Source: an uncultured Pseudomonadales bacterium (lineage in GTDB: Bacteria; Pseudomonadota; Gammaproteobacteria; Pseudomonadales; Azotimanducaceae). Taken from it: a stretch of DNA of 64,000 nucleotides. Shown here in pieces: positions 39,406 to 46,795 of this stretch. The notes under the pieces are model-generated. The model was not told where the DNA came from. It did not search any database and worked only from the letters and a program-made list of their open reading frames with translations. Location: NCBI GenBank assembly GCA_951813295.1, contig CATOTI010000002.1, positions 2,232,001 through 2,296,000 on the forward strand, given 5' to 3'. Every line of letters starts with the position of its first letter. Positions within the stretch are counted from its first letter, which is position 1. The translations under genes were made by a program, and so were the position numbers.

Positions 39406-41934
39406 CTAACCGGCCCCCGCCTCGAACAGCATCGCCATTAACTCACTCCGGCCGCGCGCCTGCTGGGGCCACGCGGACTGCAGCACGGTTCTCCCGCCTC
39501 CATCACGCAGCGAAATGTCGGCGCCGGTGTCCAGCAAGAGCCGCACGGCGTCCAGCTGATGAAAACGGATCGCTTCGTGCAGCGCGGTTGTCCGTCGCGC
39601 CCTGGCGTCTACGTCGACGCCGGCGTCCAACGCCACCTGAATGATATCCAGGTGGCCGAACTTGGCGGCGCCGACCAGTGCCTCGGCGTGCAACCCTTCG
39701 TCCGGCTGTGCGAGGTACCGACGGACCCAGTCGACCTGATGGGCCGCGGTCGCCGAGCCGATGTCCCATTCGAGCCCAGCTCGAGCAAGCGCTTCGGCCG
39801 ATGCGACGAGAGGAATGTGCTCGCGTGTCTGGGTTTGACCGGAGACGTATTGCAGCAACCGTTCCCGAATCCAGGGCGGGTCGATCAGATGGGGAGCCTG
39901 GCGGATGATTGCGTCCAGGGCATCACCATCATCGTCCAATGCTGCGTCCAGGAATCTCGCGCGACGGGCAAGAATCGCATCACGGTCTACCGCACGGAGG
40001 TTGAGGACATGGGCGATGTCCTCCAGAAGCGCCGCCGCCATGGTGTGGCCGTGAGCGCGCGCTTGGTCGATCGCGTTTCCTTCCGGATGTTCTGCGAGGG
40101 GATTAGTACCCAGGCAGCCAAGCTGCTCGATGATGCCAGTCTGTCCGTTTTGCGCCGCGAAACGCATGGCGTTCTCGCGCGTCGTCTGGTCCAAGCCGCG
40201 ACGCAGCAGTTGCCGGGCACCGAGCATGTCACCGTAGTGCGCGGGCCAATTGAGACCCATCCCGGTGTGGTTGGGGTCGAGATCGTTGTCCAGCAAGGTG
40301 TCGAGCACTTCTCGACTACCGAAGCGGGATGTAAACAACGTCAGGCCGCCGCCTAGCGGCCACCGCGCGGGCATTGAGGCGGGATGAAGCTCGGCGCCGG
40401 CTTCGATGAGTCGTGGGACCAAGTGGTCCTGACGCATGACGATCGCGCCCGTCAGCGGCGAGGACACCCAGTCCCGGCCACGCTGCGGCGGGTTCGGGTC
40501 TGCTCCCGCGTCGAGCAACAGGTCGAGGATCTCCCGATTGCCAGCGACGGCGGCGTAGGTCATCGGGAACTGACCGCTCCGTCCGCGCCCTGCTAACGAA
40601 CGATCAGCCGCCAACATTTGACGCACAATGCGCACCTGGCCTAGACCGATCGCGCTAAAGATGTCGGTCGCCGCACCGGCTGAAACGAGAGACGCCACCA
40701 TTCGAGGATCGCCGCGCCCCATTGCGGTCATGAGCGGGGTCAGGCCGTCCTCGTCCGGCAAGCTGGGATCGGCGCCGTGTGCGAGCAGCAAGTCGAGCGT
40801 GGCGAGATTCGCCAGACAGGCCTTCTGTAAGACACCGCGCTTACTCGCCTCGGCGGGGTTTTTGCGTAGCAATTGCCGCGTCTCGCGCATGAGACCCAGT
40901 TGCACGGTATTCAGCACGTCGTATTGTGCGCCGGCTTTGACGAGCATGCGGAAGATCTCCCCACCACGGTGACCGGCCGCCGTCGCTGTTGGCGGAGACA
41001 TCGCCCAGAAACGTCGATTCGGATTTGCGCCGTTCTTTAGGAGGAGTCGCACTATGCCTTTCTCGGCGCTCCACACCGCACCATCGAGCGGGGTACACAA
41101 GCACGCGTCTCCCTCGCCGCCGAGCACATCCATGTCGATGCCTTCGTCGATGAGGAACTGAGCCACGGCCAAGTGACCCCGCGTCGCCGGTCGAGACCAG
41201 TTGATGGCTCTCGCCACTGTCCGGTGCAGGAGCGTACTGCCGGTCGTCACGTCGCTGGGAGTACGAGCGTGGATCCGAGCTGGGTTCTCCTCGATCAGCT
41301 CTTTGGTGGCTTTGATATTTCCTTCGGTGACCGCCGTCCGCAGTGCTTCCAGTCGTTCGGGGAACGCGCCGGTCGACTGCATGTAGTTATCGGCTTGTGG
41401 AATGTCAGCCAGGTGGTCGGCCAGTTCGCCAAAACTGCCGAAATCGAGTTCTTGCGCAATCACCTGTTCGGCGTCCCGCCGCGAAAAGGCGGCCCCGAAA
41501 ACCGACCCGTCCGATGCGTTCGAGAATGCCGGCAGCGACTTCCGAATTCGGGTAGCCGCGATCTTGCGGTGCGCTTTGTGGTCCTCGACCAGGAAACCCG
41601 CCTGGTAGCGAAGATTCGTAAGGTCGTCGTGCTCCAACACGCGCGACATCGAAATCAGATCAGGCCAGTCGGTCGCCTGGTAGCTGAGCGCGACCGCCTC
41701 GCGAACTCGCGCCGCGCCGATGCGCGCTGCGAGGATCTCGCGCGGGTCTTCACCGACGAATTGAGGCAGAAAACGCAGCGTGGCAGTGCAGGCCTCGACG
41801 CCTGCTTGGTGTTGCGCATAGATCTCTTTTGCGCGGGTCCTCAGCACCCCCTCCGACGGGACCTGCCAGAATGCCGTCGGTGAGGGCGGTTCGTAGCTTG
41901 GATCGACGTACTGTCGAAGCGCGACCCACATCAA
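39406..41934 (-). CDS. Large ankyrin-repeat protein (842 aa)
   Basis: Multiple ankyrin units, e.g. DEDGLTPLMTAMGRGDPRMVASLVSAGA, ILDLLLDAGADPN, DAVRLLLDTGADISLRDGGGRTVLQSA. Confidence 0.88.
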   Translation of the reverse strand: MMWVALRQYVDPSYEPPSPTAFWQVPSEGVLRTRAKEIYAQHQAGVEACTATLRFLPQFVGEDPREILAARIGAARVREAVALSYQATDWPDLISMSRVLEHDDLTNLRYQAGFLVEDHKAHRKIAATRIRKSLPAFSNASDGSVFGAAFSRRDAEQVIAQELDFGSFGELADHLADIPQADNYMQSTGAFPERLEALRTAVTEGNIKATKELIEENPARIHARTPSDVTTGSTLLHRTVARAINWSRPATRGHLAVAQFLIDEGIDMDVLGGEGDACLCTPLDGAVWSAEKGIVRLLLKNGANPNRRFWAMSPPTATAAGHRGGEIFRMLVKAGAQYDVLNTVQLGLMRETRQLLRKNPAEASKRGVLQKACLANLATLDLLLAHGADPSLPDEDGLTPLMTAMGRGDPRMVASLVSAGAATDIFSAIGLGQVRIVRQMLAADRSLAGRGRSGQFPMTYAAVAGNREILDLLLDAGADPNPPQRGRDWVSSPLTGAIVMRQDHLVPRLIEAGAELHPASMPARWPLGGGLTLFTSRFGSREVLDTLLDNDLDPNHTGMGLNWPAHYGDMLGARQLLRRGLDQTTRENAMRFAAQNGQTGIIEQLGCLGTNPLAEHPEGNAIDQARAHGHTMAAALLEDIAHVLNLRAVDRDAILARRARFLDAALDDDGDALDAIIRQAPHLIDPPWIRERLLQYVSGQTQTREHIPLVASAEALARAGLEWDIGSATAAHQVDWVRRYLAQPDEGLHAEALVGAAKFGHLDIIQVALDAGVDVDARARRTTALHEAIRFHQLDAVRLLLDTGADISLRDGGGRTVLQSAWPQQARGRSELMAMLFEAGAG

Positions 41935-42099: not shown

Positions 42100-43803
42100 T
42101 TAAATCGTACCTATAATCGGTAATCGTTGTGCGCAATAAAACGGGTCGAAAAACAAAAAGGGGTCGAAGCCGATAGGCGCGATGCCCTCGTTCTCCGCGA
42201 TCCACGTGCCGTCGGCCGCGAACACGCGGTTTTCCGGCGCCGTGACGAAGCCACCATCGATCAATGGGAACGCGGACGAGCTTCGGACGAGCCCGCCCCA
42301 CGTTCTGGTCCCGATCAGCGGACCCGCATCGAGCTGCCGGAAGATCCATGGGAAGTAGTCACCCCCGCTGCCGGCCCATTCGTTGATGAGCAGCACCTTC
42401 GGGCCGAGGACGCCCGCCGGCAAGCGCGCCGGGCGCTCGTCCCAGCGCCTCGTTCGTGTAGCCCGCGTGCAACCGGCGCGTCATCAGATCGACCACGTAG
42501 TCGTCGAGGAGACCTCCGGCATTGAACCGTTCGTCGATGATCGCGGCCTCTTTGTCCTGTTGTGCGAAGGAGTAGCGATCGAACGAAACGAGACCCGGAC
42601 CCCCGGTGTTCGGCATCCAGACATAGGCGATGCGGCCTTCCGACAGCGCATCGACGCGGCGCCGGTCGTCCTCGACCCAAGCGCGCACGCGCAAGTTCCT
42701 CTCCGAACTGATCGGGCGCACGGTGACATCGCGCGCCTCATCCGGATCGGTCGTCTCCCCACGCGAAGGGCGATCTGTCGTCCGGCCGTACCATCGAGCA
42801 GCTGGTACGGCTCGATCGATGCGTCGACCGGCACGCCATCGATCGCGAACACGTACTGGTCCTCAGTGACGTCGAGACGAGGTCGATCGAGCGGGGCATC
42901 CATCCCCGGATTCCAGCTCTCGAAGGTATAGATCCGCTCGATACGCCAGAGACCGTCACTCGCGACGAGATCAGCGCCGAGGGCGGCTCCGGAGGGCTTC
43001 GCGACCTCGGGGAAATCACCACCCCCGACGAAGCTGTGACCGACGGAGAGTTCGCCACTCACTTGGTCGAGGAGATAGGTCAGATCGGCTCGGCGCCGCA
43101 CGTGGTCGACGAGCGGCCCGTACTTCTCGAAGACCGACTTCCAATCGCGGCCGTGATGACCTTGGTCATAGAAGAAATCGCGTTGCTGTCCCACGCCTCG
43201 GTGAAGATCTGGCGCCACTCGGCGAGCCGATCTATACGCATCCTGAGGGCAACATCGATCTTGCCCGCGCCCGCTTTCGGCGGCTCCGATGTGCCGACGA
43301 TCCGCCACGCACCCTTGTCGCGAAAGAGCATCTTCTTGCCGTCAGCCGAGACGACCGTGACGGGCGTGGCGCCCCCGGCAGTACCCGGCGGGATGCGGGA
43401 TCGTACCGGACGAAGGGCGTGGCCTTGCGCTCCGCAATATCGAATTCTCGATCACCACGCCGCGTTCGCCGCCGCCCGCCGGGCGCGCGAGGAACACGAC
43501 GCCTTCGGGCCCGGCGATGAGACGCTGGAACGGCTTGGTCGGCATGGGCAGTGCGACGATTCGCCGCTCGATGGCGTCGATGTCGAGCGCGACGGTCGAA
43601 GCATCCTCCGAACCCGAACCCGCGGCCGGGTCATCGCTGCCGGCACCGTTCGTGCCGTTCTCGATCGGCTCGGTCTCCGGCTCTTCGCCGGCACCGGGCT
43701 CCGCCTCGTCTTCCGCGCCCGGCTCTTCGTCGCTTTCGTGTGGGAACGGCGTCGCCGCATCGACATCAAGGACGATCGCGTACGCCGAAGTGCTGGAATC
43801 CGC
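42100..43803 (-). pseudogene. Tricorn-type S41 peptidase pseudogene, N-terminus missing and several frameshifts
   Basis: Homologous segments shared across frames: SSTSAYAIVLDVDAATPFPHESDEEPG..., IDAIERRIVALPMPTKPFQRL, DVALRMRIDRLAEWRQIFTEAW, YGPLVDHVRRRADLTYLLDQVSGELSVGHSFVGGGD, RIAYVWMPNTGGPG, KVLLINEWAGSGGDYFPWIFRQLDAGPLIGTRTWGGLV. Confidence 0.82.
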
Positions 43804-43878
43804 GGTTCTAGCTCACGCTGCTGTGGGTCGCCTGCTGACAGAGCAGGATGACGGCCCACGGGTGGCTGTGGGCGCCGA
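43804..43878. repeat. 75-bp direct repeat, copy 1 (putative IS91-type element end next to GTTC/GAAC)
   Basis: GGTTCTAGCTCACGCTGCTGTGGG...GGCTGTGGGCGCCGA; two mismatches relative to 45098..45172; contains hairpins CCTGCT-GACAG-AGCAGG and GCCCAC-N8-GTGGGC. Confidence 0.88.
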
Positions 43879-43916
43879 GCTAGTTGAAGCTGAGCAAAGT
43901 TGAAGGCGGCTTTCCG

Positions 43917-44750
43917 TTAATCTGCACACCTCATTTGAATTTCATTAAATCGCAGAGTTGCCAGTTCACTTGGTTGGCCTTTTTTGCAGAAAGCTAATTT
44001 AGCCAATCTCCTATTTGGATTTTCAACAGCCAGTTTCCCATTTGCTATCTTCTGTTCCAACCTTGAAAAGGCTTCCTTAAACCGCTTGTCATCTCGGGCA
44101 CTTTTATAAAAGGACAAAGCGTAGCAATAATAAAACAAATTATATCTCAAAAAAGGGTATTCTGTCTGCATAAATAAACTACCTATGCCAAAATTGCAGG
44201 GGCCAATTGGTTGCTTTACTTCCCAATGGTACAACAGAAATTCTACCGCCTGGTCCAGTCGCTGTTCTGTATTTAGATAGGAACTATGCCTGAAGGCATC
44301 TAATGCCTCCAATGTAACTCCCGGATTAGAAAAATCTGTCAACCTGCTCTTTCCCAATTTTACTGCATTGCATCTCCAGCCCCCATCAGCATGTTGTATA
44401 TCAAATAAATGATCGAACGTCTTTTGAAGCCTTTCATCATCAACATATCCCAGATAGCATAGTACCCGAAGAGCTGTAATTGTGTGGCAGGGATAGATAC
44501 TGCCTGAAGGCATAAGTTTAAACCGACCGTCAGGTTTCCAGCATTGGAAAATCCTTGAAGACAACCCTCTGATTTCCGGATCTTCCTTGAGAAAACCCAG
44601 TTCCGTCAAGATGATGGCTGCGTCTCTGGCCGAAAAAGGACTCCCTTTCCCTATTCGGTTATCCTCAGTTGTCCAATAATCACCTTCCAGGTGATATCTC
44701 TTGGACATAATAAAATCTATGTCCGATTTATATTGTTCTCTCGGGTTCAT
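43917..44750 (-). CDS. AT-rich cargo gene: squalene cyclase/prenyltransferase-like alpha-alpha barrel protein (277 aa)
   Basis: DGGWRCNAVKLGKSRLTDFSNPGVTLEALDAFR and repeated helical units; strikingly AT-rich codon usage compared with neighbours. Confidence 0.6.
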   Translation of the reverse strand: MNPREQYKSDIDFIMSKRYHLEGDYWTTEDNRIGKGSPFSARDAAIILTELGFLKEDPEIRGLSSRIFQCWKPDGRFKLMPSGSIYPCHTITALRVLCYLGYVDDERLQKTFDHLFDIQHADGGWRCNAVKLGKSRLTDFSNPGVTLEALDAFRHSSYLNTEQRLDQAVEFLLYHWEVKQPIGPCNFGIGSLFMQTEYPFLRYNLFYYCYALSFYKSARDDKRFKEAFSRLEQKIANGKLAVENPNRRLAKLAFCKKGQPSELATLRFNEIQMRCAD

Positions 44751-44937
44751 TTTATTTCAATACTATGAATATCCTCAGATCGGCCTGAATATCGGGCTTT
44801 GGGGCAGTTTTGTTTATGGGTAAAATCGGGAGGATCCAAAGAACCAGGCACCAGTCCGCCTTACCGGAAGTTTGTCCATTCAGGCTCAGGGGTACCGCGT
44901 TTCAGGCACTGATCTGCGCCAACAACCCTTTTACGCA

Positions 44938-44960
44938 ATAGGCGGATAGGCGGATAGGCG
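44938..44960. repeat. Short tandem repeat (ATAGGCGG)x2.9
   Basis: ATAGGCGGATAGGCGGATAGGCG read directly. Confidence 0.7.
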
Positions 44961-45097
44961 AGATTACCGGCCCTTTCGGACATAGGCCAGAGTATCGATT
45001 TGGGGCGGACGTGGCACGTGCTCGTGCCACATCCTCGGTAGGCGGCCAACGGAGTGGTTCGTGGGTTAGGGATGTTGGACGGCTGGCAAGGTAGCTG

Positions 45098-45172
45098 GGT
45101 TCTAGCTCACGCTGCTGTGGGGCGCCTGCTGACAGAGCAGAATGACGGCCCACGGGTGGCTGTGGGCGCCGA
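45098..45172. repeat. 75-bp direct repeat, copy 2 (putative IS91-type element end next to GTTC/GAAC)
   Basis: 73/75 match to 43804..43878; lies just 3' of the transposase remnant at 45188..45420. Confidence 0.88.
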
Positions 45173-45187
45173 TCACGACGCGCTGAT

Positions 45188-45420
45188 CAGGTCGGGTTGC
45201 TGTGGTCTGGCGGTACGCGTCGAGGTGCCGGCGGCCCGCGCTTGCGTACATGCGCCAGAGTTCGGTTGATCAGCGCGGGGCCGGTCACATCCGCGATCAC
45301 CCGCAAAGTTCCGCCGCCGTGCGGACACAGGGTGATGTCAATCAGGAACACGCGCTTGAGGCGCTGCGCTCAGGTCAGCGGTGCCTGAGGGTCGGTGACC
45401 GGCGCGCTCGCTGGTTTGGC
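45188..45420 (-). mobile_element. IS91-family transposase C-terminal remnant (pseudogene)
   Basis: PLT*AQRLKRVFLIDITLCPHGGGTLRVIADVTGPALINRTLAHVRKRGPP resembles the IS91 tail ...LKRVFxIDIxxCPxCGGxLRVIA...ILAHL; internal TGA and a Cys-to-Gly change indicate decay. Confidence 0.78.
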
Positions 45421-45534
45421 CTGATTGGTGCGAAACCGATGGGTCTGGGAATTGCGGATGTGCGAGGTGGTCCGGGTGCAACCCTGGGAGACGGTCATCG
45501 CGAAAGTGGTGACACCCCCCACGGTCCTCTCCCC

Positions 45535-46587
45535 TCATCCTTCGAGGCGAACACCAAACGCCGTCTCCCATGTCTCGCCTGCCTGCAAGACCACGAGTCC
45601 ATCACCATTGTTGAAACAGTCCGTCTGACCCGACATGGGTTCCACTGCGACCACACCGAGATCGCGCATCCCGGTATACACCTGGATAAAACGGCACTGA
45701 CCGTCCTGCCACAAAACGATCGGCGCAGGCTCCCACCCTTCTGGATGGTCGTGGATTCGCGTTTCCAACTGGGGGACGGCGCGGGCGCTGGCGGTTGCTT
45801 TGAATCCATCATCCCAATATTTGTCACCCAGGGGCTGCCCTCGAGTGAAGTCGTCCGAAGGAAGCGCCAAACCCGTCGGATGGGTATCGCGTTTAGGCCC
45901 CGCAGGACCCGGGCCAATGGGCTCAGACACGTTGTACGTCGTCCGTCTATCGAACGCGACGACCGCATTCGAAACTGCACCTTCCAACTGAAAGTAAGGA
46001 TGCCAACCAACCATGAACGGAGCCGGCAGCCCCGTTTCTGAAACGTTGGTTGCTGCAACCTCAATCGCAAAACCATCGAAACCCAGGCTATAGGTGAAGG
46101 CAACATTCACGAGAAACGGGTAGCCCTCGTAGGAACCATCAAACGAGGCCGTCAACGTCAGTCGGGCATCACGCGACGTAGCGTCGCGATTAGATACGTT
46201 CAGTTCCTGTGGCAGGAGACCGTGGATGGCATGCTGACCGTTGCCCGTAATACGCGTCTCGACTTCATCCCAGTTGCAGGCAAGCTGGTGCTGCTCTCCG
46301 CCAAAGTTGAACAACCCGTTACGAACGCGGTTGGCAAAAGGTGCCATCACACCACCGGCAAACCCCCGCCGATGTGGCAGCACTTCCCTCAACTTGTTGG
46401 TTTGGGGATCCCTTAACAACAGACCATTGACCGCGCCTGCACCCGTGCTCCGGTTTTGCCCGCCTGGTGTATTGAGCAGAATTTCCGCCAATTCCCCATT
46501 TTCAGAATTGCCCAGAACTGCGACGCGAACCCGACGCCCTTGCTGGTCTGCGTAGGCATCTTCGGTAACTGTGAATACATCAGCCAC
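45535..46587 (-). CDS. Aldose 1-epimerase family protein
   Basis: GVMAPFANRVRNGLFNFGGEQHQL, HAIHGLLP, PAPFMVGWHPYFQLEG, VAVEPMSGQTDCFNNGDGLVVLQAGETW; likely GTG start at 46587. Confidence 0.82.
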   Translation of the reverse strand: MADVFTVTEDAYADQQGRRVRVAVLGNSENGELAEILLNTPGGQNRSTGAGAVNGLLLRDPQTNKLREVLPHRRGFAGGVMAPFANRVRNGLFNFGGEQHQLACNWDEVETRITGNGQHAIHGLLPQELNVSNRDATSRDARLTLTASFDGSYEGYPFLVNVAFTYSLGFDGFAIEVAATNVSETGLPAPFMVGWHPYFQLEGAVSNAVVAFDRRTTYNVSEPIGPGPAGPKRDTHPTGLALPSDDFTRGQPLGDKYWDDGFKATASARAVPQLETRIHDHPEGWEPAPIVLWQDGQCRFIQVYTGMRDLGVVAVEPMSGQTDCFNNGDGLVVLQAGETWETAFGVRLEG

Positions 46588-46639
46588 GTCGGACCCGCTC
46601 CTGCTGTAGCACTCGTTGCGTCTCCCCGCGTTCGTCCGG

Positions 46640-46795
46640 GCACTCTGTGTGCCGGCGCTATCGTGGCACGCTGCGTCTGATCGGGACCTGGCCGCCCCGC
46701 AGCTCATCGACCGCATCCTGACCGATTTGCGCAAGCGCGGCGCCCGCAAACCCCACCAACCAGACTTGCTCAGCGCCTCCTGGTCTGATGTCTCT
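46640..46795 (+). mobile_element. Second IS91-like transposase C-terminal remnant, opposite orientation, frameshifted
   Basis: RGTLRLIGT in one frame followed by LAAPQLIDRILTDLRKRGARKPHQPDLLSA in the next frame. Confidence 0.55.

What the first reader, a model, noticed from the sequence alone, without database searches (positions are those of the whole stretch)
43804..45172. AT-rich cargo gene between two 75-bp IS91-type ends, both abutting GTTC/GAAC
Seen: 43804..43878 and 45098..45172 match at 73 of 75 positions in direct orientation and diverge immediately outside. Both begin at GGTTC|TAGCTCACGC, so on the minus strand each end is followed by GAAC. Copy 2 sits just downstream of an IS91-type transposase tail. 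Knowledge: IS91-family rolling-circle elements insert next to GAAC or CAAG without target duplication. Inference: the repeat is an ori-type end, and a foreign AT-rich gene lies between two such ends, as expected for one-ended or ISCR-like cargo mobilisation. This may be a cargo-carrying IS91-like element not yet catalogued.
Basis: partly seen in the sequence, partly recalled or inferred. Interest (0 to 1): 0.78.

Follow-up and report, generated by a model that had tools for sequence, protein, structure and literature searches.

The report
Broken ISCR-like transposon beside foreign gene
A dead, truncated remnant of a known kind of rolling-circle mobile element lies next to a horizontally acquired foreign gene; the 75-base repeat that drew attention is an internal scrap of that element, not its end, so the site is mostly ordinary genomic debris.

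Summary
The repeat is real: 43804-43878 and 45098-45172 match at 73/75, in direct orientation, around an intact AT-rich foreign gene. The reading as two IS91 "ends abutting GAAC" does not hold. GGTTC lies inside a longer repeat: other genome copies share the stretch to its left with copy 2, down to 44952. Exactly there, ~200 nt after the stop of an ISCR-like transposase tail, sits the oriIS-type terminus found after related transposases in the same bacterial family. Copy 1 has neither terminus nor transposase sequence. GAAC/CAAG follows 1 of 15 termini. Only about the last 100 codons of the transposase survive, with a stop inside; no other significant match was found in the genome. The foreign gene encodes a stand-alone 277-aa squalene-cyclase-like protein, without a close homologue in 206 other family genomes and 46-69% identical to proteins of Owenweeksia, Syntrophomonas and Enterococcus. 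Verdict: degraded ISCR-like element, a known kind, with a horizontally acquired gene on its ori side. How copy 1 arose, and whether the gene travelled with the element, are unresolved.

The parts
44952..45001 (-). oriIS-type terminus of the ISCR-like element (last bases GGTAATCTCGCCTATCC, the element ending at 44952)
   Evidence: Best PWM site in 64 kb at 25.3 bits, next 13.3, PWM built from 11 relatives only; own copies 2-5 all end here and diverge outside; homology among relatives also stops here
   Evidence: Copies 3 and 4 share it across GGTTC; stop-to-terminus distance 235 nt, ~203 without the ~32-nt insertion, against 183-210 nt in ten relatives
45007..45038 (.). approximately 32-nt insertion containing the palindrome GTGGCACGTGCTCGTGCCAC, present in copy 2 only
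   Evidence: Alignment with copies 3-5; palindrome unique in the genome at up to 1 mismatch
45187..45486 (-). C-terminal remnant of ISCR-like transposase (stop at 45187-45189, premature TGA at 45370-45372)
   Evidence: NF052416 ISCR_clade_Ia E 4.6e-12; only match of this family in the genome at a significant level; 32-65% identity to relatives' C-termini
43804..43878 (-). copy 1: internal 75-nt fragment of the ISCR-like 3' region, lacking both the terminus and transposase sequence
   Evidence: 73/75 identity to 45098-45172; alignment; PWM at its end below -21 bits
43917..44750 (-). intact 277-aa foreign gene, squalene-cyclase/prenyltransferase-like fold
   Evidence: 13 homologous loci, aligned homologues 46-69% identical; absent from 206 other family genomes except one weak 27% match; model pLDDT 90.6, best fold matches squalene-hopene cyclase; GC 41%
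44751..44951 (.). 201-nt spacer between the start of the foreign gene and the ISCR-like terminus
   Evidence: GC 49%; not part of any repeat copy
46641..46748 (+). possible second ISCR-like transposase tail in inverted orientation, DNA similarity only
   Evidence: 70% over 112 nt to 45226-45334, E 3e-8 in the local comparison; no protein-level support
45535..46638 (-). aldose 1-epimerase gene between the two tails
   Evidence: PF01263 E 2.2e-23
42100..43803 (-). tricorn-type protease pseudogene spread over several frames and cut off at copy 1
   Evidence: PDZ_Tricorn, Tricorn_C1 and Peptidase_S41 matches in different frames

Best explanation
The site is the decayed 3' end of an ISCR-like element (IS91 superfamily, HUH rolling-circle transposase). 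Shown: its minus-strand transposase gene is reduced to about the last 100 codons with a stop inside; ~200 nt further on, at 44952, the element ends in an oriIS-type terminus shared with copies elsewhere in the genome and with related elements. A foreign squalene-cyclase-like gene lies 201 nt outside that terminus in the same orientation. Copy 1 is a 75-nt internal scrap of the same 3' region. Inferred: when active, such an element is nicked at oriIS and copied by rolling circle towards the other end; genes found on the oriIS side were brought there by earlier rounds, circle capture or later recombination, and may be read from promoters in the ori region. Here the element is dead and cannot move itself; the foreign gene either came with it or was acquired separately. 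Copies 3-5, which all keep the terminus but stop at different points on the transposase side, fit aborted rolling-circle insertions or later deletions.
For: Tail matches ISCR_clade_Ia at E 4.6e-12. 84 of 207 family genomes hold such transposases or parts of them. Downstream of ten of them a common terminus lies 183-210 nt after the stop, and pairwise homology among relatives stops at that terminus, within a few nt (L034/L052, L034/L047, L052/L047, L038/L037, L033/L051, L052/L036). A PWM from relatives alone ranks 44952-45001(-) first in 64 kb, 25.3 against 13.3 for the next and 8.3-20.1 as maximum in 20 random sequences. Own copies 2-5 share this terminus and diverge immediately outside (|GCCT, |GAAC, |GCGT, |GCGG). 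No other significant transposase match of this family in the genome. Foreign origin of the gene. In ISCR1, variable genes lie on the oriIS side with a spacer of 0-1211 bp and outward promoters (PMC6218425).
Against: The relatives' termini were aligned by eye on a CTATAC/CTATCC/CTAACC ending before the matrix was built, and five of eleven score 10.4 bits or less when left out, so the motif is loose. The terIS end was not found. No empty site was recovered. That the foreign gene moved with the element is not shown: none of its 13 homologous loci has such a transposase within the fetched flanks of up to 3 kb.
Confidence: 0.85

Rival explanations
1. One reading: the 75-nt repeat is an ori-type end that inserts next to GAAC, and the AT-rich gene is cargo between two such ends.
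For: Two direct 75-nt copies flank the gene and both start with GGTTC.
Against: GGTTC is internal to a longer repeat in copies 2, 3 and 4; PWM at these ends is -21 to -43 bits; copy 5 keeps the terminus at 44952 but lacks the 75-nt repeat altogether.
Confidence: 0.03
2. An ISCR 'sandwich': a circle carrying the foreign gene recombined with a resident copy, leaving ISCR 3' regions on both sides of the gene, as reported for ISCR28 and sul4. This concerns how the gene and copy 1 came together and is compatible with the terminus at 44952.
For: Two direct copies 97% identical flank the gene, closer to each other than copy 2 is to copy 3; the arrangement is described for ISCR28 (PMC12772301).
Against: The sandwich needs an oriIS in each flank; copy 1 has none and has no transposase sequence next to it. 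Two further deletions would be needed.
Confidence: 0.12
3. The foreign gene arrived independently (for instance by plasmid or natural uptake) and the ISCR-like remnant and copy 1 are unrelated neighbours in a decaying intergenic region. This too is compatible with the terminus at 44952; it denies only the link between element and gene.
For: Homologues of the gene stand alone in varied contexts without ISCR-like transposases in the fetched flanks; the neighbourhood holds a tricorn pseudogene and a possible second broken tail.
Against: The GC shift ends close to the terminus at 44952, and the gene lies on the side and in the orientation usual for ISCR-adjacent genes (PMC6218425).
Confidence: 0.3
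4. Mis-assembly at a repeat.
For: Repeats can join unrelated contigs; the assembly has 7.4% estimated contamination.
Against: The repeat is 75 nt at 97%, and the site is inside a 4.36-Mb contig, so ordinary long-read assembly would span it. Reads could not be examined.
Confidence: 0.03

Closest known systems
ISCR elements (NCBIfam ISCR_clade_Ia; IS91 superfamily)
   Same: Transposase C-terminus, non-coding 3' region of ~200 nt (232-bp oriIS-containing region in ISCR1, PMC6218425), a terminus read as oriIS, a foreign gene on the oriIS side
   Different: Transposase reduced to its tail with a stop inside; below the curated ISCR cut-off even in intact relatives (617 against 925 bits); no terIS found
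ISCR28 sandwich around sul4 (PMC12772301)
   Same: ISCR-derived sequence on both sides of a foreign gene
   Different: Only one side here has an oriIS-type terminus; the other is a 75-nt internal scrap
IS91 itself
   Same: Superfamily
   Different: GAAC/CAAG flanking is seen at 1 of 15 termini here, as an occasional coincidence would give
Squalene-hopene cyclases / prenyltransferase-squalene oxidase repeat proteins
   Same: Alpha-toroid-like helical fold and conserved DGGW motif
   Different: Short stand-alone protein of 277 aa, best fold TM-score 0.56 by query length, function untested

Membership tests
ISCR-like (IS91 superfamily) | Transposase C-terminal sequence of the family | tested here: met
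   NF052416 positions 440-492, E 4.6e-12; 32-65% identity to relatives
ISCR-like (IS91 superfamily) | Complete HUH transposase with catalytic residues | tested here: not met
   Only the tail is present, and no other significant match in the genome; the Y2_Tnp search was uninformative, no control rang
ISCR-like (IS91 superfamily) | oriIS-type terminus downstream of the transposase | tested here: met
   44952-45001(-), 25.3 bits, ~203 nt after the stop without the insertion
ISCR-like (IS91 superfamily) | terIS at the other end | not tested
   The 5' part of the element is missing here; terIS was not searched for in relatives
   Only copy 3 of 15 termini (4 own, 11 relatives) is followed by GAAC, none by CAAG; the last base of the terminus is uncertain by one or two positions
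IS91 superfamily | No target-site duplication | not testable with these tools
   No element with both ends and no empty site were available
ISCR sandwich | oriIS-bearing ISCR sequence on both sides of the captured gene | tested here: not met
   Copy 1 lacks the terminus
Active mobile element | Circular intermediates or recent transposition | not testable with these tools
   Needs reads or PCR

The most novel reading that the evidence does not exclude
Copies 2-5 all keep the terminus exactly but are cut at different points on the transposase side (copy 5 at about 77 nt, copy 4 about 145, copy 3 about 258, copy 2 about 490 or more). They could be products of aborted rolling-circle transposition anchored at oriIS, a bacterial counterpart of end-truncated retroelement copies, rather than ordinary deletion remnants.
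Probability: 0.15. Interest if true: 0.45.

Novelty: new member of a known kind. Interest (0 to 1): 0.22.

Why it matters
It places an ISCR-like element, a kind known mainly from antibiotic-resistance plasmids, next to an unrelated foreign gene in a chromosome, in a family where 84 of 207 sampled genomes hold such transposases or parts of them. It also shows how a short repeat can look like a transposon end when the real terminus lies 146 nt away. Truncated copies that all keep the ori terminus would bear on how these elements insert; a 2018 paper states that transposition of ISCR elements had not been shown experimentally (PMC6218425).

Tried and rejected
Y2_Tnp family search in the genome: no hit, but no control rang, so uninformative. 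Exact pattern for the 75-nt core in genome contigs: none. Repeat in 98 other relatives and a 264-nt consensus in 397 order genomes: only this genome, apart from one 32-nt marginal match. Empty site in the genus by DNA: no informative match for the window locus; for copy 5 the left-hand gene was found in many genus members, but the right-hand gene was not beside it in the fetched loci. Integron attC: considered by eye from the letters only; the R and L boxes did not fit; no attC program was run. Single-strand DNA fold of the 3' region: z -1.0, not exceptional. Promoter scan: one match overlapping the start of the foreign gene, weak. PADLOC: no match. The C2:3541370 match was taken as chance from the look of its surroundings, not tested. 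A first script for stop-to-terminus distances failed to find the stops and was redone with a looser motif (L050 still not measured).

Full report
Observation. The match is far beyond chance. The segment between them is 43% GC in a 62% GC window and holds one intact 277-aa gene on the minus strand. Right of copy 2, on the minus strand, is a transposase C-terminus matching NCBIfam ISCR_clade_Ia at positions 440-492 of 509, E 4.6e-12, with a TGA inside.

Where the element really ends. A search of the whole genome with 44751-45534 found further copies at C1:202701-202959, C1:206428-206572 and C2:3907476. The two C1 copies match copy 2 across GGTTC and leftwards, apart from a ~32-nt insertion in copy 2 and small indels, and all of them begin at window position ~44951. 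The family is rich in such transposases: 84 of 207 genomes have a match. Reading the DNA after the transposase stop in the best relatives shows a common ending, of the form GTTATTCTTCCTATACC, 183-210 nt after the stop in ten of them. In six pairs, homology between relatives stops at this ending, within a few nt; one pair (L034/L055) continues 400 nt beyond, as expected if both genomes share one insertion, and in many pairs homology ends before reaching it. A weight matrix was built from the 11 relatives' endings only, aligned by eye. Scanned over the 64-kb window on both strands, it gives 44952-45001(-) as best site at 25.3 bits, next best 13.3; the maxima in 20 first-order Markov sequences of the same length ran from 8.3 to 20.1. 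The matrix is loose: five of eleven relatives score 10.4 bits or less when left out. The distance from stop to terminus in the window is 235 nt, or ~203 without the ~32-nt palindromic insertion that copies 3-5 lack.

The flanking tetranucleotide. Outside the terminus, the four own copies read GCCT, GAAC, GCGT and GCGG; the eleven relatives show neither GAAC nor CAAG. GAAC/CAAG specificity is thus not supported for this group, with the caveat that the exact last base is uncertain by one or two positions.

What the copies are. Aligned at the terminus, copies 2-5 are nested: all keep it, and on the transposase side copy 2 runs for about 490 nt or more, copy 3 for 258, copy 4 for 145 and copy 5 for 77. 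Copy 1 is the exception, with neither terminus nor transposase sequence. It is closer to copy 2 (97%) than copy 2 is to copy 3. Simple capture of a circle by recombination should leave a terminus in copy 1 and transposase sequence beside it, so it would need two later deletions; how copy 1 arose remains open.

The foreign gene. Homologues of 46-69% amino-acid identity occur in MAGs or genomes labelled Owenweeksia, Syntrophomonas, Enterococcus, Vagococcus and others. Among 207 family genomes only this one has it, apart from a 27% match in one other. Two plasmid records carry 40-50% homologues, annotated as prenyltransferase or squalene oxidase repeat proteins. The predicted structure is confident (pLDDT 90.6); its best matches are squalene-hopene cyclases, as also found by profile search. 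Neighbouring genes differ between homologous loci. Its start lies 201 nt outside the terminus, in the orientation of the transposase. In ISCR1, the genes on the oriIS side lie 0-1211 bp away and can be driven by promoters in the ori region (PMC6218425); whether that holds here is untested, and the promoter scan gave nothing convincing.

Surroundings. Left of copy 1 is a tricorn-type protease in several frames, cut off at the repeat; nearby genes are open, so the frame breaks are probably real. Right of the tail is an aldose 1-epimerase and then a stretch 70% alike to the transposase tail in inverted orientation, which has no support at protein level.

Verdict. Ordinary in kind: a dead ISCR-like 3' end with a horizontally acquired gene beside it. 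Whether the gene travelled with the element is not shown.

Noticed in passing
45007-45038: A perfect 20-nt hairpin palindrome (GTGGCACG-TGCT-CGTGCCAC) inside a ~32-nt insertion in copy 2 only; unique in the genome at up to one mismatch.
   Followed up: partly
42100-43803: Tricorn-type protease (PDZ, C1 and S41 matches) spread over several frames and cut off at copy 1: a pseudogene.
   Followed up: partly
45535-46638 and 46641-46748: Aldose 1-epimerase gene lying between two divergently oriented transposase-tail-like stretches; the second is supported only by DNA similarity to the first.
   Followed up: partly
L004 7000-7700 and 10500-11430: DNA just outside the termini of copies 3 and 4 is lower in GC (about 0.52-0.57) than the inside; copy 5 shows the reverse (0.65-0.67 outside), so no general rule.
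   Followed up: partly
L013 3500-4262: This 763-nt stretch occurs again at 100% identity at C2:4108149, and 545 nt of it at 94% at C1:48235: another repeated sequence near copy 5.
   Followed up: no
39406-41934: An 842-aa ankyrin-repeat protein.
   Followed up: no
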